Of a DNA stretch of 64,000 nucleotides, positions 12,442 to 22,975 are shown piece after piece. The stretch is taken from the NCBI RefSeq assembly GCF_037892605.1, contig NZ_JBBKTU010000001.1, forward strand, positions 1,302,001 to 1,366,000. The letters are read 5' to 3'. Below the pieces are notes generated by a model. That model worked only from the letters and a program-made list of their open reading frames with translations. It searched no databases and was not told the DNA's origin. The translations under genes and the position numbers were made by a program. Each line of letters starts with the position of its first letter. Position 1 is the first letter of the stretch. Source of the DNA: Lacibacter sp. H407. Lineage in GTDB: Bacteria > Bacteroidota > Bacteroidia > Chitinophagales > Chitinophagaceae.

Positions 12442-12671
12442 CTACGAACCCAACCAGTATATGAAGCAGCAGCCAAGTGGTTGCTGTTTTTTTGTGCCAC
12501 CGAGGTCCGGCTCTGCCGGTCATATTCCTGCTGCCCAACCTTCCTGTCATCCCGACCGGTCCCGCAATCGGCGGGAGGCACGAGGGATCTGATCTGTTGA
12601 AAAATGTTTTGCCGTCGATGAACACAAAAGAACACAGATAAAAAACAGCCAATAACAGCAAGCAGTAAGTA

Positions 12672-12700
12672 CGGTCGGCCCGGCTCTGCCGGTCTGAACG
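12672..12700 (-). repeat. 29-bp CGTTCAGACCGG element, copy in minus orientation
   Basis: Matches the copies at 22877-22905 and 25261-25289 with one or two differences. Its left flank, back to about 12610, also matches the inverted flank of the 22877 copy (to about 22968). The full unit is therefore near 90 bp and includes a GATGAACACA...ACACAGATAAAAAACA part. Confidence 0.7.
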
Positions 12701-12795
12701 CTTGAAGAAACTTCCACGCCGAGTTCACTTAGTTGGCAGAGAAAAATCCCTTTGCGCCCTCATCCTCTCTGCATGAAAAACAATCAATAGTAGTA

Positions 12796-12954: not shown

Positions 12955-13368
12955 ATGGCCGATGTACATACCAAAGCACAACGCAGCTACAACATGAGCC
13001 GCATCAAAGGCAAAAACACAAAGCCCGAACTGCTGGTGCGGAAATATTTACATGCACAGGGCTTTCGTTACAAACTGCACGACAAAACTTTACCCGGCAA
13101 GCCCGATCTCGTATTACCTAAATACAACACCGCCATCTTCATACACGGCTGCTTCTGGCACGGACACGCAAACTGTAAATATTTTACCATTCCCAAAACA
13201 AGAACCGATTGGTGGATGGATAAGATCAATAAGAATCGTACGAATGATGTAAAAGCAATGAAGCTGCTGAAGGAAGATGGATGGAAAATAATTACGATCT
13301 GGGAATGCAAACTAAAACCTGCTAAGCTTGAACAAACACTTGCCGCTCTGGTAAAAAAACTCTCCTGA
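12955..13368 (+). CDS. vsr: Very-short-patch repair endonuclease Vsr
   Basis: Nicks DNA next to T:G mismatches that arise when 5-methylcytosine deaminates, protecting methylated sites from C-to-T mutation. The 137-residue length is normal. Visible motifs are SRIKGKNTKPELLVRKYLH at the start, GKPDLVLPKYNTAIFIHGCFWHGH with the catalytic Asp and zinc/active-site His residues, and GWKIITIWECKLK at the end. It is the first gene of a cluster that continues with an XRE controller, a C5 methyltransferase and an HpaII-like nuclease, which makes functional sense. Confidence 0.93.
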   Translation: MADVHTKAQRSYNMSRIKGKNTKPELLVRKYLHAQGFRYKLHDKTLPGKPDLVLPKYNTAIFIHGCFWHGHANCKYFTIPKTRTDWWMDKINKNRTNDVKAMKLLKEDGWKIITIWECKLKPAKLEQTLAALVKKLS

Positions 13369-13441: not shown

Positions 13442-13681
13442 ATGGATATGAAAACCAAAATTGGTTTGCGCATTAAAGAACTACGCACCGATCAAAATCT
13501 CACACAGGAAGAAGTTGCATGGAAAGCAGAGGTAGACAGAACATTTATGAACCATGTTGAAAATGGTAAACGCAATGTTTCTGTTGATACACTTTCAAAA
13601 ATTATCTGCAACGGATTAGAAACAAGTTTCAAGGATTTTTTTCACACAGAACTATTTAACGGGAAAAGGAAAAGCAAATGA
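13442..13681 (+). CDS. XRE-family helix-turn-helix controller of the R-M system
   Basis: A 79-residue single-domain protein of the XRE/C-protein type: IGLRIKELRTDQNLTQEEVA forms the first helices, and VDRTFMNHVENGKRNVSVDT the recognition helix region. Its size and position before the methyltransferase fit a C protein that times methyltransferase and nuclease expression. A palindromic site lies just upstream. Its stop overlaps the methyltransferase start (ATGA). Confidence 0.85.
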   Translation: MDMKTKIGLRIKELRTDQNLTQEEVAWKAEVDRTFMNHVENGKRNVSVDTLSKIICNGLETSFKDFFHTELFNGKRKSK

Positions 13682-14955
13682 AAACAATCGAAAAACCAAT
13701 ATTGGTTAGCGCAAAAATTTATATAGTAGCAGAGAAGCTTTGGAAAGTAGCTCTTTTTGGTCCTGATAATTACCAGGCAGCAGTCATAAGTCATTACGTA
13801 AAAACAAAAGAGAAGAAACTTAAAAAGCCTGCAATTGCATTTGCAAAGGAATTGCTGACAGGATATTTTGAAGAGAACGAAATTTCAAATGCTGTTGCTG
13901 AGCAGGCATTACAATATTTAATAAAATTCAACGACGATATCCCGTTTCCCACACCTCCTAAACCAAAATTTAAATTCATCGATTTATTCGCCGGGATTGG
14001 AGGTTTCAGACTTGCTATGCAAAATTTAGGAGGTGAGTGTGTTTTCTCTTCTGAGTGGGATAAAGAAGCTCAAAAAACTTACTACGCAAACTTTGGTGAA
14101 ATTCCGTTTGGAGATATTACTAAAGAAGAAACAAAAAAATGGATTCCAAAAGAGTTTGATGTTCTCTGCGCAGGCTTTCCATGTCAGGCATTTTCAATTG
14201 CCGGTAAGCGGGGAGGTTTTAATGACACAAGAGGAACACTTTTCTATGATGTTGCAGAAATAATACGAAGACATAAACCTAAAGCTATTTTTCTGGAAAA
14301 TGTAAAAGGGCTTGTTAGCCATGATAAGAGAAAAACGCTTGAAACAATTCTTTACGTACTAAGGGAAGAGTTAAAGTATTATGTCCCCGATCCTGAAATT
14401 TTAAATGCAAAATATTTTGGTGTGCCACAAAATCGAGAAAGGATTTTTATTGTTGGCTTCAAAAAAGAGCTAGGCGTTAAAGATTTTGAATATCCAGAAC
14501 AAAAAGAAATAACCGCAGCAGTAGAAGATATTTTAGAAAAGAAAGTTGTGAATGCAAAATACTACATGTCAACTCAGTATTTGAAAACTCTTGTTGAACA
14601 TAAGGCAAGACATGAAAGTAAGGGTAACGGTTTTGGCTATGAAATTTTAAACAAAGATGGTGTTGCAAATGCAATTGTGGTAGGAGGCATGGGAAGAGAA
14701 AGAAATCTAGTAATTGATAAACGATTAAAAAATTTTACTCCTACAACAAAAATCAAAGGCGAAGTTAATCGTGAAGGAGTAAGAAGATTGACGCCTAGAG
14801 AATGGGCAAGGCTCCAAGGGTTTCCTGATCATTATGTTATAGATAAAGTAGCAGATGCGTCTGCTTATAAGCAGTTTGGTAATTCAGTTGCAGTGCCTGC
14901 AATACAAGCAACAGCTGAATTGGTTATCGAAAAGATTCAAAAACACCTAAAATAA
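13678..14955 (+). CDS. DNA (cytosine-5-)-methyltransferase, HpaII-system type
   Basis: Methylates cytosine at C5 in its recognition site, protecting the host from the partner nuclease. All main motifs are present: I FIDLFAGIGGFRLA, IV GFPCQAFS with the catalytic Cys, VI ENVKGL, VIII QNRERIFIVG, IX RRLTPREWARLQGFP, X YKQFGNSVAVP. The C5 core begins only at about residue 100. The N-terminal ~95 residues are an extra helical domain whose role I do not know. The gene sits between the controller (4-nt overlap) and the nuclease (5-nt gap). Recognition of CCGG is inferred from the neighbouring nuclease. Confidence 0.93.
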   Translation: MKTIEKPILVSAKIYIVAEKLWKVALFGPDNYQAAVISHYVKTKEKKLKKPAIAFAKELLTGYFEENEISNAVAEQALQYLIKFNDDIPFPTPPKPKFKFIDLFAGIGGFRLAMQNLGGECVFSSEWDKEAQKTYYANFGEIPFGDITKEETKKWIPKEFDVLCAGFPCQAFSIAGKRGGFNDTRGTLFYDVAEIIRRHKPKAIFLENVKGLVSHDKRKTLETILYVLREELKYYVPDPEILNAKYFGVPQNRERIFIVGFKKELGVKDFEYPEQKEITAAVEDILEKKVVNAKYYMSTQYLKTLVEHKARHESKGNGFGYEILNKDGVANAIVVGGMGRERNLVIDKRLKNFTPTTKIKGEVNREGVRRLTPREWARLQGFPDHYVIDKVADASAYKQFGNSVAVPAIQATAELVIEKIQKHLK

Positions 14956-14960
14956 TTTTT

Positions 14961-16103
14961 ATGGCATTATCTGGTAATAAAGGAGAATGGAGTGAAGTAT
15001 ATGTTGTACTCAAGCTGTTAGCAGAGGGTAAACTTTTTTCTGCTGATAGTAACTTAAACAAAATAGCTGGGACATTCAATCCAATTATAAAGATCATACG
15101 TGAACAAGCTCAAAATTCTACTATTGAATACTTGATTAATGGGAACATAAAAGTGGTTGAGGCAAATACAAAAAATGTCTTAGTTGAATTAGCTACTTCA
15201 GTTTTTATTAGAGAGGCAAAGAAACTATTCAAAAGTATAAAGCAAGGGAAAGGAAATGCATTTTCTATTTCAGCAGTAGAATCTTTTTTACAAAGTATAA
15301 GCATCACACAACTAAAAACTAAAAGCGTAGAAAAGGCTGATATTATTTTAGTGATTCATGATACGAACACAGCGACAACACCGAAACTTTCCTTTAGTAT
15401 TAAATCACTTATAGGTAAGGAGCCTACATTGCTAAATCCTGGACCTGGAACAAATTTTATCTACAAAATAATTCCATCAAATGGCGGAAAATCTATTGAT
15501 GTAGCAAAGTTTAATAAAGCGACAATAGCTAAGCCTAAAATTACTAATCGAATTAATAAGCTAATTAGTGACGGTTATTCAATCCAATTTAAAACAATTC
15601 AATCAGAAAACTTCTTATTAAACCTTCAGTTACTTGACGGTGATTTACCAAGAATTCTTGCTGAACTGTTATTAATTAAATACAAATACTCAAAATCAAA
15701 AACTAAAGAGTTGTTATCCTTAGTTGAACAAATCAATCCCTTAAATTATGACTTAGGCAAAGGGCATCCTTTTTATAAATATAAGCTTACAAGTTTGCTT
15801 TATGATTATGCTCTTGGTATGACACCTGAAGTAGTATGGAAGGGACAGTATAATGCAAACGGAGGTATTATCGTTGCAAAAAATGATGAGGACGTTATTT
15901 GTTATCATATTTATGATAGAAATCTTTTCCAAGATTATTTGGTTAATAATACCAAGTTTGAGCAGGCCTCTACTGGCGAAGATGAAAGTAATCCTGGGAA
16001 GCCCCGAACAAAAAAGGGAACCAAGACATATCATTATGGTTGGCTTTACGAAGAATCTGGCGAGTATTATTTAAAGCTAAATCTGCAAATTAGGTTTATT
16101 TGA
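14961..16103 (+). CDS. HpaII-family type II restriction endonuclease (predicted)
   Basis: A 380-residue protein that follows the C5 methyltransferase by 5 nt. Its N-terminus, SGNKGEWSEVYVVLKLLAEG followed by KLFSADSNLNKI, is the pattern I associate with the HpaII family, which cuts CCGG. LSFSIKSLIG (about residue 150) could carry the active-site Lys of a PD-(D/E)XK-like fold. Together with a C5 methyltransferase and vsr, which also accompanies the HpaII system, this supports the call. The base composition is clearly AT-rich, as in the genes around it. If it is not HpaII-type, it is still very likely the nuclease of this system. Confidence 0.75.
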   Translation: MALSGNKGEWSEVYVVLKLLAEGKLFSADSNLNKIAGTFNPIIKIIREQAQNSTIEYLINGNIKVVEANTKNVLVELATSVFIREAKKLFKSIKQGKGNAFSISAVESFLQSISITQLKTKSVEKADIILVIHDTNTATTPKLSFSIKSLIGKEPTLLNPGPGTNFIYKIIPSNGGKSIDVAKFNKATIAKPKITNRINKLISDGYSIQFKTIQSENFLLNLQLLDGDLPRILAELLLIKYKYSKSKTKELLSLVEQINPLNYDLGKGHPFYKYKLTSLLYDYALGMTPEVVWKGQYNANGGIIVAKNDEDVICYHIYDRNLFQDYLVNNTKFEQASTGEDESNPGKPRTKKGTKTYHYGWLYEESGEYYLKLNLQIRFI

Positions 16104-16194: not shown

Positions 16195-16947
16195 TTATAA
16201 GGCTTCAATTTTTGTTGTAACGGCCTCTAGTGATTGTTCAAAGAAACCTCTTTTCATGAAGCTAACGGGTTTAGTACCTCCAATAAGATTTATATACTTA
16301 GTTATAAACCTGGTTTTATCTTCAAATTTATTTTCAAATAACTGGGGGTTGTTTTTGATAAAAGATAAAATGCCAATAACAGCTTCTTTATGTCTGGATA
16401 AATTATATGTTCCAAGAGTGCGTGTAGCAAAATCAACATTTCTGTATAATACCTCAGTCAGATGATATGGGTTTTCAGAATTTTCTGCGTCATAAGAAAG
16501 ATAGGCTGACCACCATAAGCCCGAAATTCCATGTCTTAAAAAATTTGACTGCGTCGGGCTGGAAATAAACCAGTGATCAAGAATATACTTAGAAGGATCC
16601 TTAGCATTATTAGTACGAATTCCAGGCCACCTCATGCTCATGTATTTAAAGCAATCGACATGTGCGAGATAAATCCAAAATCTTTCATCTGAAGCTTGTA
16701 AAGGGGTCAAGTCTTTATATGCGATATGAATTTTTTTAGCATTTTCACAATCTTCAAATCCTTTTGATGATGTGTCAGTAGTTATCAGCGATAATTTATC
16801 AGGTGCATTGATTGCTGGTGTTACGAGCGTTGACTGATCGTCAAAAAGGAAAGTATCGCTTTGATAGTATTTAATTAAAGATCCATTCTTGATACCTTCT
16901 TTTAACTTATCTAAATAGGAACGTTTAAATATTTTTTGAAACTCCAT
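16195..16947 (-). CDS. Third gene of the GHKL operon, unknown (DUF6339-like)
   Basis: A 250-residue soluble protein. The middle is the most distinctive part: LTPLQASDERFWIYLAHVDC, then YMSMRWPGIR, DHWFISS and RHGISGLWWSAYLSY, an aromatic-rich helical pattern that I associate only weakly with the DUF6339 family. No known catalytic motif stands out. It lies 11 nt after the second gene of the operon, so the three are probably made together. It converges on the HpaII-like nuclease gene. Function unknown; by position a part of a defence system. Confidence 0.6.
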   Translation of the reverse strand: MEFQKIFKRSYLDKLKEGIKNGSLIKYYQSDTFLFDDQSTLVTPAINAPDKLSLITTDTSSKGFEDCENAKKIHIAYKDLTPLQASDERFWIYLAHVDCFKYMSMRWPGIRTNNAKDPSKYILDHWFISSPTQSNFLRHGISGLWWSAYLSYDAENSENPYHLTEVLYRNVDFATRTLGTYNLSRHKEAVIGILSFIKNNPQLFENKFEDKTRFITKYINLIGGTKPVSFMKRGFFEQSLEAVTTKIEAL

Positions 16948-16958
16948 ATATTACTACA

Positions 16959-17822
16959 TTAATTTTCGTCAACGTTATCAGTTTGCTTGTTAAAAAGATC
17001 TCCGATTAGTCTGCTGACTGGAAGGCCCAGAAGTTTTTGTACAATTTTAGGAATATTGATTTCTTCAAAAGGTATTTGCGGCATTTCATTCATAACTCGA
17101 TTATTAATAACCTGAGCCCAAGCATACGTTTCAAAATCTGCAGGCTCTTTTATGAGCCGATGAATTGCATGAATTAAAGTAGACAAGACGATAGAAGAAT
17201 GAAATAAAGATGCCAAAATGGGATCTTTTCCAATCCTTGGATCACTATATTTTTCATAGTCTTTTTGAGAAAGCTCTACTCTGATCTTAGGTCCGTCTAA
17301 AATTATATTAAAGCCACCTGTTTCTTCGCTTCCCTTTATTATTTCCATAAAAGAGGAAACTGCTTTTAATTTTTGATATGAAATGCTAGCAAAGAAAGAA
17401 GATTCACCCATATATGCGAGAATATCTCCTTGTTCAATATCAAACTGATAGCCCCCGAAGTCGTTATGAAAATATCTATTTGAATAGTTTGCAAGCTTTT
17501 CATTCGCAACTACAAGAAACAATAGGTTTACCTGATTTCTAACTTCATTTTTTGCAATTAGAATTTTTTGCTCTTTTTGTTGTGTTGTAAACACCTTTCT
17601 ATATAATGTGGAAGAACAGCTTACTTCACATGCGAAAGACAATTTGCCCACTTCTATGAGCTGATTTATCTCGTCATTATTTATAATATATTCAAAAGAA
17701 AGAATATAGTTTTCTTTATCTGTTTTGTCATCGTAGTTAATATTCATGGTTGGGTATTCACCAATATAATCATCTCCCAACCCACTGACAGGATGCGGGA
17801 AGGAATAGCCGTTAAATTTCAT
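16959..17822 (-). CDS. Second gene of the GHKL operon, unknown
   Basis: A 287-residue protein that I do not recognise. The first ~180 residues look beta-rich (SFPHPVSGLGDDYIGEYPTM, FACEVSCSSTLYRKVF, YQFDIEQGDILAYMGE). The rest is helical and starts with DPRIGKDPILASLFHSSIVL, then AWAQVINNRVM. It has no signal peptide or clear membrane segment. Its start overlaps the end of the GHKL ATPase gene by 11 nt, which argues for translational coupling and a shared complex or pathway. Confidence 0.6.
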   Translation of the reverse strand: MKFNGYSFPHPVSGLGDDYIGEYPTMNINYDDKTDKENYILSFEYIINNDEINQLIEVGKLSFACEVSCSSTLYRKVFTTQQKEQKILIAKNEVRNQVNLLFLVVANEKLANYSNRYFHNDFGGYQFDIEQGDILAYMGESSFFASISYQKLKAVSSFMEIIKGSEETGGFNIILDGPKIRVELSQKDYEKYSDPRIGKDPILASLFHSSIVLSTLIHAIHRLIKEPADFETYAWAQVINNRVMNEMPQIPFEEINIPKIVQKLLGLPVSRLIGDLFNKQTDNVDEN

Positions 17823-19770
17823 AAGATTTTAGCTTTAATGAGTGTTTTTGATTACTATCAAACTTTACTTTCAATTCATTCCACCCTGCTTTAAGTGCTA
17901 CGTGTTTTATTTTATTGGCATCGACTTTTAATATATCTGTATCATGAGCCGCCTCACTAATTGTTAGCATGTCATCCTTTTCAGAATCATTATCAACTCC
18001 TGCATGAAGTTGTAATTCTGCATTTGCATTTTTCGAACTAAAGATTCTGATAATATGTTCAAATCTGCCATCTGCTGTTTTTGTGGCAATAACTCTTGTC
18101 TTTACTGGCAAAACGATTTTTATTTTTTCAAGCCCAGATTCATTTCCTCTTGCAGTGCTTTGTCCAGGCAAAAGCCCTGGAGCTAATGCAGGTTCTCCAC
18201 CTTGAGAGTCTGTATTAATACCTATTGTTCCCGTAAAAACGTTATCATCACCTTCAGGATTTACGTTACCTTGTGTATTTCTTGAAATATTTTGATTTCT
18301 AATTGCAAGCTTTATAGGTTCTTCACTTTCATTTAACGTGTTTTCAATTGCGGTTTCCTCAATTGTGGCTTCTTCGGAAATATTAAGCCCCCCTACAGCA
18401 TCACCATCTCCCGTTTCATTTTCTTCAAGTAGATCTTCAGGAATATTTAAATAGCGGTCTAGTCCAATAATACGCTGCTTTTTTCCTGTATCTGCCGTCA
18501 TCAATGTTTCCAGACATTTTTTGACAAATGATTTTAGCTCGTTTTCTGCAAGTGCTGCTTCTGTATGAGGCCTTTCATTATCCAGGTAATTATTTTTCTT
18601 CCACTCATTGTGCTGTGGATTTTCCATTTGTCTCAATATCTCATTCCCTTTTTCGTTATCACACACAAAAACACCTGCATAATTAAAACCCCTATTGTCA
18701 GTTTTTTTAAAAACCACCATTTTGGGACTACGCATATACATTATTCTGTTAGGGTAGTTATCTTTTAGAAAAACAGCCAGCCTCACTTTTCCGATAGTTG
18801 GTAATTCGTCTTCAAAGTATTTGGTAAATCTGGAATCTTCTTTAAATTTTATCGCTTTAAAGTAAGGGTATGGATTCCAGTTTTCTGGTTCATTCACGCT
18901 GCCGTCAGGAAGTTCATCTGAATAATACTCGAGCATAACTTGTTCAAGATTACTTTTGTCAATTGTAATACCATCGACGTCTGCAACTAGGTGTTCTTCC
19001 CAAATTGATAGCCAGAAATTATTTAGTATTGATTTTATTAAACTGGTTTTCCAAACGTGTTCATCGCTTTTAAATCCGATAATTATAATATCTGTTCCTG
19101 TCTCATTTCTTCTGAATAAATCTGGAAGTAAGTCAGGATTATCAATTGCTTTTCCATTTTCGAATCCAAACAAACCGGTATAATCAGATTTTTTCCCTGA
19201 TTCATCTTTATGAGTTGTTAATCTGGCCTTTCCCCTAAATATAAATTTGTCACTATCATAAATGCTCGAGACAGTGATTATTCTCAATGGCGAAGCGGCG
19301 TAATAAGCCCCTTTACCAAACCCAAATGATCCCCCGGCACCTGCCGATGCTTTGTTAGTTACCCCTACCGCATCCATAAATGCATAAAACTTGCATCGTG
19401 TGTCATCTGGGCTATATTCAAGGCCTGTCGTATTATAATCGCTTATTCTAAGACATGTGATGGCTTCTTTACTTAGGATGTCCTGAGCGGTATTGCAGAA
19501 GTTAACAAAAGGCTTATCTGCAGAATAATAATCTGAGCACATTTGATATCTCTTTGATACATCAAAAAGCTGGGGTAAATCTTGTTTTAGAATAGTAAAT
19601 AGGGAAAACTTAACCTTTACCGGTTGCGATTTATCAACAACAGCATCAAGACTATTTTGAATAACTTCTCTTGCAAGAGAATAGTATTTGTCACCTTTAA
19701 AAGTTTGGGTAATTGAATCTTTGGGACCATGTTCTTCGGAGCCGCTTGGGCCAAAATACCATTGAAGCAT
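17812..19770 (-). CDS. GHKL (Hsp90/MutL-type) ATPase, defence-associated
   Basis: A 652-residue protein with an N-terminal GHKL ATPase fold. N-box: AREVIQNSLDAV (residues ~34-45). G1 box: LRISDYNTTGL (D-x-N-x-x-G, ~104-114). G2 box: GAGGSFGFGKGAYYAAS (~143-159). ATP-driven dimer opening and closing is known for this fold. After about residue 420 comes a long acidic, low-complexity linker (~440-540), then a beta-sandwich-like end of ~100 residues. There is no His-kinase phosphoacceptor box, so it is not a sensor kinase. MutL/MORC-like GHKL ATPases in R-M neighbourhoods have been described, and this gene heads such an operon next to an HpaII-like system. Confidence 0.75.
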   Translation of the reverse strand: MLQWYFGPSGSEEHGPKDSITQTFKGDKYYSLAREVIQNSLDAVVDKSQPVKVKFSLFTILKQDLPQLFDVSKRYQMCSDYYSADKPFVNFCNTAQDILSKEAITCLRISDYNTTGLEYSPDDTRCKFYAFMDAVGVTNKASAGAGGSFGFGKGAYYAASPLRIITVSSIYDSDKFIFRGKARLTTHKDESGKKSDYTGLFGFENGKAIDNPDLLPDLFRRNETGTDIIIIGFKSDEHVWKTSLIKSILNNFWLSIWEEHLVADVDGITIDKSNLEQVMLEYYSDELPDGSVNEPENWNPYPYFKAIKFKEDSRFTKYFEDELPTIGKVRLAVFLKDNYPNRIMYMRSPKMVVFKKTDNRGFNYAGVFVCDNEKGNEILRQMENPQHNEWKKNNYLDNERPHTEAALAENELKSFVKKCLETLMTADTGKKQRIIGLDRYLNIPEDLLEENETGDGDAVGGLNISEEATIEETAIENTLNESEEPIKLAIRNQNISRNTQGNVNPEGDDNVFTGTIGINTDSQGGEPALAPGLLPGQSTARGNESGLEKIKIVLPVKTRVIATKTADGRFEHIIRIFSSKNANAELQLHAGVDNDSEKDDMLTISEAAHDTDILKVDANKIKHVALKAGWNELKVKFDSNQKHSLKLKSYEI

Positions 19771-20104: not shown

Positions 20105-20250
20105 TTACTTCTTCTTGTAATCACTCACTTTTTCATCGAACTGCACCATCTTCCCCTTCTCCATCCGGATACCGTTGACTACATTCATCGAGTCGGCCAC
20201 AACATTCGCCTCTTTCCTGTTTTGTTTGTATCAGAGGGTACCATTCGAAC
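20105..20250 (-). pseudogene. Degraded 3' copy of the NTF2-like lipoprotein gene at 22103
   Basis: Reading the minus strand, the last ~45 codons match the end of the intact gene at 22103-22648: TL-stop-YKQ against TLWYKQ, then ADSMNVVNGIRMEKGKMVQF against ADSMNVVNDIRMENGKMVQL, ending KVSDYKKK against KVSHYQKKK. The conserved Trp codon is TGA here, and the match runs out in a small frameshift near 20240. The terminator behind it is also duplicated. The copy is therefore a dead remnant of a ~190-bp or longer duplication. Confidence 0.85.
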
Positions 20251-22102: not shown

Positions 22103-22648
22103 TTACTTCTTCTTCTGGTAATGGCTCACTTTTTCATCGAGCTGCACCATTTTACCATTCTCCATGCGGATGTCGTTTACTACATTCATCGAGTCGGCTA
22201 CACCTTTTGCATCTTTCCAGCTTTGTTTGTACCAAAGGGTTACCCACTCCGTTTTTTTATCGGCTGATATAACGGATACATAGTCACCCATGGTCACTAC
22301 AAGATCGTTATACATGTTGCGTGCATCGGCGAAAAATTTCATGGCACTGTCACGGCTGAGTTTTGCCTGGTAATAATCAAAGTCGAGTTGAATAGAATCG
22401 CCTGTAGCATTGGCCAGTGCTGTAAAGTCTTTATCAACAAAGGCTTTTAAACCAGCCATGGCAGCAGCTACATTTTCTTTACTGCCGATCGACCAGTCTT
22501 TGTAAGGAGCCGACAATGTGTAAGGCAGTGTTACCTCAGCAGCTGCAGCGGCTTCGGATGTTGCCGGTGCTTCAGTGGTTTTGGTGTCGGCATTGTTGCA
22601 GGAATCCAAGGCAAAGACAAGGCATAAAAAAGCAAAGATCTGTTTCAT
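22103..22648 (-). CDS. Lipoprotein with NTF2/SnoaL-like domain
   Basis: A 181-residue lipoprotein. The signal peptide ends in a lipobox-like LDSC at about residue 17; Asp at -2 is unusual but the rest fits. An Ala/Thr-rich linker follows, then an NTF2-like domain (MAGLKAFVDKDFTALANATG through TEWVTLWYKQSWKD to ENGKMVQLDEKVSHYQKKK). It is a distant paralogue of the lipoprotein at 11899-12441, and a degraded copy of its 3' end is at 20105-20250. Function unknown. Confidence 0.8.
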   Translation of the reverse strand: MKQIFAFLCLVFALDSCNNADTKTTEAPATSEAAAAAEVTLPYTLSAPYKDWSIGSKENVAAAMAGLKAFVDKDFTALANATGDSIQLDFDYYQAKLSRDSAMKFFADARNMYNDLVVTMGDYVSVISADKKTEWVTLWYKQSWKDAKGVADSMNVVNDIRMENGKMVQLDEKVSHYQKKK

Positions 22649-22858: not shown

Positions 22859-22876
22859 TTACTCCTCCGTGCCAAT

Positions 22877-22905
22877 CGTTCAGACCGGCGGAGCCGGGCC
22901 GACCG
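22877..22905 (+). repeat. 29-bp CGTTCAGACCGG element, exact copy
   Basis: Identical over 29 bp to the copy at 25261-25289. Its right flank to about 22968 matches, inverted, the flank of the copy at 12672-12700. Confidence 0.75.
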
Positions 22906-22975
22906 TACTTACTGCTTACTGTTGTTGGGTGTTTTTTATCTGTGTAATTCTGTGTTCATCCGTGGCCAAACTGGC

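What the first reader, a model, noticed from the sequence alone, without database searches (positions are those of the whole stretch)
16195..19770. Three-gene GHKL-ATPase operon facing an HpaII-like R-M system: candidate defence system
A 652-residue GHKL ATPase with intact N, G1 and G2 boxes and no histidine-kinase box is translationally coupled (11-nt overlap) to a 287-residue protein and followed after 11 nt by a 250-residue protein with an aromatic-rich core. The operon converges on a C5-methyltransferase/nuclease/Vsr cluster and shares its low GC content. GHKL/MutL/MORC-like ATPases next to R-M genes have been described, but I do not recognise the two partner proteins, and no Z1 helicase is present, so this may be a new variant.
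Basis: partly seen in the sequence, partly recalled or inferred. Interest (0 to 1): 0.8.

Follow-up and report, generated by a model that had tools for sequence, protein, structure and literature searches.

The report
GHKL-ATPase cassette paired with DNA methyltransferases
The three genes are an intact copy of a defence cassette that databases already list as a candidate, and comparing many genomes shows it moves as one unit from one DNA-methylation (restriction-modification) system to another, which suggests it is an ATP-driven partner or substitute for their cutting arm, although I found no published test of it.

Summary
ORFs A (652 aa, GHKL ATPase), B (287) and C (250) lie at 16195-19770 on the minus strand, with an 11-nt A/B overlap and an 11-nt B/C gap, converging on a control-protein/C5-methyltransferase/HpaII-type endonuclease unit with Vsr.
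It is not a new variant: A, B and C match PADLOC's candidate system PDC-M33; C is Pfam DUF6339. A carries the ExxxH motif that Iyer et al. (2008) named for paraMORC2.
Comparison adds this. A, B and C co-evolve, independently of the neighbouring methyltransferase. Of 49 distinct M33-clade loci, 35 have a C5-methyltransferase within 7 kb, 41 some DNA-modification enzyme. In 26 of 49 C5-linked loci of all clades it adjoins the block on the same strand. Elsewhere the block sits with N6 or type I S+M genes. A ~75-aa gene often precedes A but is absent here.
The site is a hotspot: five of six congeners read carry other R-M or defence genes there; none of 13 searched has M33A.
Best reading: a mobile, ATP-gated anti-phage effector coupled to DNA modification.

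The parts
17812..19770 (-). A: GHKL ATPase, PDC-M33A, paraMORC2-like (652 aa)
   Evidence: PADLOC PDC-M33A 1.4e-113 over 1-651; GHKL boxes and ExxxH (E383, H387) invariant in 54 of 54; profile match to GHKL proteins
19645..19668 (-). N box of A (E35..D42, EVIQNSLD; catalytic Glu and Mg-binding Asn by analogy)
   Evidence: sequence; residue roles recalled
19423..19440 (-). G1 box of A (D111..G116, DYNTTG)
19312..19332 (-). G2 box of A (G147..K153, GSFGFGK)
18610..18624 (-). ExxxH motif of A (E383..H387), the motif named for paraMORC2
   Evidence: 54 of 54; motif described in PMC2292703
16959..17822 (-). B: PDC-M33B (287 aa), no other family
   Evidence: PADLOC 1.5e-54; no Pfam hit, no credible PDB relative
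16195..16947 (-). C: PDC-M33C = DUF6339 (250 aa)
   Evidence: Pfam 2.4e-57, PADLOC 4.1e-42; no PDB relative
14961..16103 (+). HpaII-type restriction endonuclease (380 aa), converging on C
   Evidence: RE_HpaII 1.3e-104
13678..14955 (+). C5-cytosine DNA methyltransferase (425 aa)
   Evidence: DNA_methylase 1.2e-101
13442..13681 (+). R-M control (C) protein, HTH, 79 aa
   Evidence: PADLOC Control_protein 8.1e-15
12955..13368 (+). Vsr endonuclease (137 aa); a Vsr is found at this site in four congeners too
   Evidence: Vsr 6.3e-35; L132, L133, L135, L137

Best explanation
A-B-C is a self-contained, horizontally moving anti-phage cassette (PDC-M33) built round a GHKL ATPase of paraMORC type with intact ATP-binding boxes, and it works in partnership with a host DNA-modification enzyme. 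Proposed steps: (1) the modification enzyme marks host DNA (inferred); (2) A dimerises on ATP binding and closes on DNA like other GHKL clamps, with B as obligate partner (inferred from family knowledge and co-evolution); (3) foreign DNA that lacks the mark, or that has been cut by the companion endonuclease, triggers the closed complex, and C delivers or recruits the destructive step (inferred). Shown here: A, B and C are one co-evolving unit; the ATPase boxes are intact; the unit is exchanged among unrelated methyltransferases and often lies in the same gene run as they do. Not shown: anti-phage activity, ATPase activity, target, or which subunit is the effector.
For: Unit: A, B and C occur together in 47 of 49 M33-clade loci; tblastn with A and with C hits the same 21 of 72,556 plasmids; distance correlations A-B 0.82, A-C 0.81, B-C 0.81, each p 0.002, the least that 499 permutations can give (31 loci). 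Link with modification: C5-methyltransferase within 7 kb in 49 of 78 distinct loci and 35 of 49 of the M33 clade, any modification enzyme in 41 of 49; 45 C5 genes in 538 kb within 4 kb of A against 2 in 367 kb at 6 kb or more (77 loci); 33 of the 49 have the methyltransferase next to the block, 26 on the same strand, 16 of these with a gap of 33 nt or less. Chemistry varies: N6 methylases in L062, L070, L074, L077; two ORFs that look like adenine methylases by eye beside an AlwI-type endonuclease in Lactococcus; type I S and N6 methylase genes before A-B-C in the four L. salivarius plasmids looked at; C fused to an SspD-like domain in L072, the same extension by eye in L069. Mobility: among 59 related genomes only the window's own has A; the methyltransferase arrangement changes at least 28 times on the A tree; plasmid-borne.
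Against: The methyltransferase is swapped with no trace of co-evolution (A-MT 0.01, p 0.42), so a direct, specific subunit contact is unlikely or must be generic. Many loci, this window included, also encode a recognised endonuclease (HpaII, MutH, HNH, AlwI, FokI-like, or a PADLOC type IV enzyme), so the block is not needed to complete R-M there; a congener carries the same control protein (96%) and methyltransferase (89%) without A-B-C. In 8 of 49 M33-clade loci no modification gene was found (some contigs are short, and not every neighbour was scanned). The methyltransferase arrangement is more clustered on the A tree than in shuffles (28 changes against a mean of 38.5, as low in 0 of 200), so exchange is frequent but not free of ancestry. 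I recognised no known catalytic signature in the conserved residues of B or C (by eye).
Confidence: 0.5

Rival explanations
1. A-B-C (with or without the small gene D) is the restriction arm itself: an ATP-dependent restriction machine that takes its specificity from the modification enzyme, as type I or type III systems do, and simply coexists with an endonuclease in this window.
For: 16 same-strand methyltransferase-block pairs with a gap of 33 nt or less; the near-copy group L058-L060 shows methyltransferase-D-A-B-C (Vsr before it in L058), with ORFs of 174 aa or less as the other neighbours listed for L058, of which one was scanned without a hit; L057 is D-A-B-C-methyltransferase beside a fumarase gene, with no hit for the next large ORF; L. 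salivarius has S-M-[80 aa]-A-B-C with no HsdR annotated in between.
Against: The methyltransferase is exchanged without co-evolution; an ordinary endonuclease is present in many loci; small or novel endonucleases could have been missed, and only chosen neighbours were scanned.
Confidence: 0.3
2. A-B-C is a fully independent (abortive or DNA-targeting) defence system that merely shares defence islands with R-M.
For: Loci without a modification gene found lie beside helicase genes (L042 SLFN-type, L063 UvrD-type); Shedu and AbiG neighbours on plasmids; hotspot location.
Against: The enrichment is for modification enzymes, often in the same gene run.
Confidence: 0.3
3. A-B-C is a MutL-like repair or self-protection accessory of C5-methyltransferase R-M systems (with Vsr, against 5mC deamination or self-cutting).
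For: C5-methyltransferases are the commonest partner found and Vsr is near in 13 of 49 M33-clade loci; GHKL/MutL kinship.
Against: Same cassette with N6 and type I modification genes; no Vsr found in 36 of 49; at the window's site a Vsr is present without A-B-C in four of six congeners read.
Confidence: 0.1

Closest known systems
PDC-M33 (PADLOC-DB 2.0.0 candidate; PMC12988326 says PDCs came from a guilt-by-embedding screen and cites the preprint of Payne et al. 2024, which I did not see)
   Same: All three proteins match M33A, M33B, M33C in the same order, A and B over nearly full length and C over residues 5-230 of 250
paraMORC2 family (Iyer, Abhiman and Aravind 2008, PMC2292703; parts 1-2 of 4 and term passages read)
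   Same: GHKL boxes, ExxxH motif, sporadic distribution, C5-methylase and Vsr neighbours
   Different: No helicase among the seven window proteins scanned; S5 domain and descent from the original members not tested; I saw no mention of B, C or D in the parts read
[not shown]
   Same: GHKL ATPase with C5-methyltransferase and Vsr; found at the very same site in congener G007 (L135)
   Different: No helicase here; A, B and C match no Mza model up to E 1
VcSduA, GHKL-Shedu of Vibrio cholerae (PMC12137116, passages read)
   Same: GHKL ATPase proposed to control a defence nuclease
   Different: One protein with a DUF4263 nuclease; no such nuclease domain in A, B or C by Pfam

Membership tests
PDC-M33 | M33A, M33B, M33C genes adjacent in order | tested here: met
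   1.4e-113, 1.5e-54, 4.1e-42; order as in relatives
PDC-M33 | demonstrated anti-phage activity | not testable with these tools
   no paper of the library holds 'PDC-M33' or 'DUF6339'; bioRxiv not held
GHKL ATPase superfamily | N, G1 and G2 boxes with the N-box Glu/Asn | tested here: met
   no Pfam HATPase hit for A
paraMORC2 | strongly conserved ExxxH motif | tested here: met
   E383 and H387 in 54 of 54; that it lies in an S5 domain is inferred from its place after the GHKL boxes
paraMORC2 | S5-fold domain following the GHKL domain | not testable with these tools
paraMORC2 | neighbourhood of DNA methylases and Vsr | tested here: met
MORC proper | GhXhhpXXRhl motif in the S5 domain | not tested
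   motif named in PMC2292703; not looked for
MutL / mismatch repair | match to a MutL family model | tested here: not met
   no MutL hit for A in Pfam or NCBIfam up to E 1
[not shown]
   no Mza model for A, B or C up to E 1
Type II R-M, HpaII type (neighbouring unit) | HpaII endonuclease plus C5-methyltransferase | tested here: met

The most novel reading that the evidence does not exclude
M33 is a portable, GHKL-driven restriction arm that can serve modification enzymes of quite different chemistry (C5, N6 type II, type I S+M, perhaps sulfur modification), i.e. a new class of ATP-dependent restriction defined by a MORC-like ATPase with two novel partners and a small helper gene (D) shared with other GHKL-like defence operons.
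Probability: 0.25. Interest if true: 0.85.

Novelty: new member of a known kind. Interest (0 to 1): 0.5.

Why it matters
The proteins are already catalogued as a defence candidate, so the window by itself is one more member. The comparative result matters more. One tight three-protein unit is shuffled among unrelated DNA-modification systems, which makes a sharp prediction: it needs a modified host but not a particular recognition sequence. That can be tested in a laboratory strain, and it bears on what prokaryotic MORC-like ATPases do in restriction-modification operons, a question raised by the 2008 survey.

Tried and rejected
New-variant reading: rejected because PADLOC has models for all three genes.

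5mC-repair accessory: disfavoured by N6 and type I partners and by loci in which no methyltransferase was found.

D and a recognised endonuclease as mutually exclusive: looked so at first, dropped because several loci have both (L045, L076, and plasmids L111, L129, L130).

CARF_Card1 match of C (E 0.0095): below cutoff, treated as chance. Agglutinin_C match of A (0.14): chance. PDB sequence searches with A alone and with profiles of A, B and C gave nothing I credit; the best was 0.027 to a phage gp35 over the low-complexity stretch of A. Viral-contig scan: 35 pattern matches, no relative; one short unannotated phage record matches A at 34% over 99%, not followed. Profile comparison of A with the D-linked ATPase sets A9 and A10 gave no match, so kinship of A to those proteins is not shown. 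Promoter and terminator scans were at chance level.

The N6 count covers only loci that I sent to Pfam; L081 has an untested ORF with an NPPY motif. Of the 21 plasmid records with A, I opened ten.
Full report
Observation. The three ORFs are real, at the stated coordinates, with the stated overlap and gap. The neighbours are a Vsr, a 79-aa HTH control protein, a C5-methyltransferase and an HpaII-type endonuclease, open from start to stop and on the opposite strand. The stretch is AT-rich. The scan lists no terminator in the 91 bases between the endonuclease and C, and its overall counts are at chance level.

Identity. PADLOC-DB gives the name: A and B match PDC-M33A and M33B over nearly their whole length, C matches M33C over residues 5-230, and C is Pfam DUF6339. 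[quoted passage not shown] PMC11811056 (passages) calls them unpublished candidates. No paper in the library holds 'PDC-M33' or 'DUF6339', but preprints are not held.

The ATPase. Pfam does not recognise A, but 54 aligned proteins keep the GHKL boxes, and a profile of four GHKL proteins, two of them confirmed by Pfam, aligns to A through the N, G1 and G2 boxes at E 1.8e-6. As controls, A against B and A against D gave probabilities of 0.1-0.2%. A also has an invariant E383-x-x-x-H387. Iyer et al. 2008 (parts 1 and 2 of 4 and term passages read) name a strongly conserved ExxxH as a feature of their paraMORC2 family and report methylase and Vsr neighbours for this group of GHKL proteins. I therefore call A paraMORC2-like; its S5 domain and direct kinship to their sequences were not tested.

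One unit. A first survey found A in 9 of 395 genomes of the phylum and DUF6339 in 7 of 395, the window's own genome counted in both; six genomes have both. A scan of named genomes gave 115 relatives, of which 80 were kept. A, B and C occur together in 47 of 49 and 20 of 22. A and C, searched separately, find the same 21 of 72,556 plasmids.

Link with DNA modification. 49 of 78 loci have a C5-methyltransferase within 7 kb: 35 of 49 in the M33 clade, 10 of 22 in the sister clade, 4 of 7 unassigned. With at least 5 kb on both sides the M33 figure is 22 of 30. Close flanks are far richer than distant ones (45 genes in 538 kb against 2 in 367 kb). As background, 22 of 39 relatives have any C5-methyltransferase match in the whole genome. 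Of the 49, 33 have the gene next to the block without another ORF of 100 aa or more, 26 of them on the same strand, 16 with a gap of 33 nt or less; the window is among the 16 with other genes in between. Adding N6 methylases confirmed by Pfam (L062, L070, L074, L077) gives 39 of 49, and an SspD-like extension of C (PADLOC hit in L072; the same extension by eye in L069) gives 41. I opened 10 of the 21 plasmid records, and each has a modification gene in the stretch read: Lactococcus, Priestia, Deinococcus, Planococcus, Arthrobacter, Paenarthrobacter and four of L. salivarius. The Lactococcus methylases are my reading by eye of two unlisted ORFs. In L. salivarius the order is S, N6 methylase, 80-aa ORF, A, B, C; one of the four copies is broken.

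Exchange of partner. Over 31 loci, distances of A, B and C correlate at 0.81-0.82 (p 0.002), but A and the methyltransferase at 0.01 (p 0.42); L038 and L041 share 69% identity in A but 21% in the methyltransferase, while other close pairs (L044/L046, L032/L035) keep similar ones. On a tree of 70 A proteins (first 460 residues, quick method, some long branches) the arrangement of the methyltransferase changes at least 28 times, against 38.5 in shuffles (as low in 0 of 200): frequent exchange, with some inheritance. HpaII-type endonucleases accompany the window, L031, L037 and L049; L031 and L049 are sisters, L037 sits with L034 and L036, and the window lies elsewhere in the same ten-row group. 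Other companions are MutH, FokI-like, HNH and PADLOC type IV enzymes.

A small fourth gene. A ~75-aa ORF, here called D, with no Pfam or PADLOC match for two members scanned, lies directly or one gene before A in 35 fetched loci, duplicates included, and in 29 of the 78 distinct ones. The window lacks it, and no match was found in its genome (14 of 20 first-look candidates scored). D also stands before other proteins with GHKL-like motifs: 615-621-aa proteins on Agrobacterium, Dinoroseobacter and Rhizobium plasmids, 751- and 800-aa proteins in genomes G213 and G158, and less clearly an 800-aa protein in Ensifer. Pfam support is weak: HATPase_c_3 at 0.0031 (L113) and 1.7e-4 (L124), both below cutoff, none for L123 and L125. 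No such neighbour was seen for D in G100, Vescimonas and Rhizobium SU303.

The site. None of 13 congeners searched has M33A. I read the site, or its desaturase side, in six congeners. Between the same desaturase and ABC-transporter genes, G012 has the same control protein (96%) and methyltransferase (89%) with a diverged HpaII-type endonuclease (42%); G013 a Vsr and another methyltransferase; G003 a Vsr and two large genes, one with a PDC-M26A match; G007 Mza (MzaB 4.6e-110, MzaC 7.3e-161) with methyltransferase and Vsr. G009, where only the desaturase side was found, has a methyltransferase and two Vsr genes. G001 shows no R-M gene on that side. The R-M unit therefore exists without A-B-C, and A-B-C was gained here or lost elsewhere.

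Mechanism. The anatomy fits an ATP-gated complex: A closes on DNA, B and C are obligate partners, and C sometimes carries extra domains (SspD-like, or a region related to the HNH endonucleases), which suggests that C faces the target or carries the effector. The link to modification enzymes of several chemistries suggests that the host mark licenses it; the lack of co-evolution speaks against sequence-specific recognition by A-B-C itself. Whether it replaces, backs up or merely accompanies the endonuclease is open. CapK/CapS (PMC13373217, passages) and VcSduA (PMC12137116, passages) show other uses of GHKL domains in immunity; PMC3710099 (passage) reports HEPN domains fused to paraMORCs in R-M loci.

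Verdict. Ordinary as an instance, catalogued as a candidate, with no published test found in the library, and with comparative evidence that makes it a good subject for a direct test.

Noticed in passing
window 13442-16103 against L131 (G012): Control protein 96% and methyltransferase 89% identical, but the HpaII-type endonuclease only 42%: the endonuclease seems to have been replaced next to an almost unchanged methyltransferase.
   Followed up: no
L135 (G007): A Mza system (MzaB, MzaC) with C5-methyltransferase and Vsr sits at the same chromosomal site in a congener.
   Followed up: partly
L065:9714-9947 and 34 more loci; L113, L114, L123, L124, L126: Unnamed ~75-aa family D upstream of PDC-M33A and of other GHKL-like proteins.
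   Followed up: partly
window 12606-12704 / 22873-22971 and 20108-20239 / 22109-22240: 99-nt inverted pair (88%) and 132-nt direct pair (85%) around the island; the latter's first copy looks like a fragment of the gene at 22103-22648.
   Followed up: no
L049 and L085: A Balneola and another Balneolaceae carry different R-M units plus A-B-C near relatives of one gene (quinone-oxidoreductase-like by eye), perhaps another hotspot.
   Followed up: no
L142:5965-10685: In L. salivarius p612A the A gene is split and a group II intron maturase gene lies within the B region; described only.
   Followed up: no
L072:12733-14442, L046:12802-14466: C fused to an SspD-like domain and to a region related to HNH endonucleases.
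   Followed up: partly
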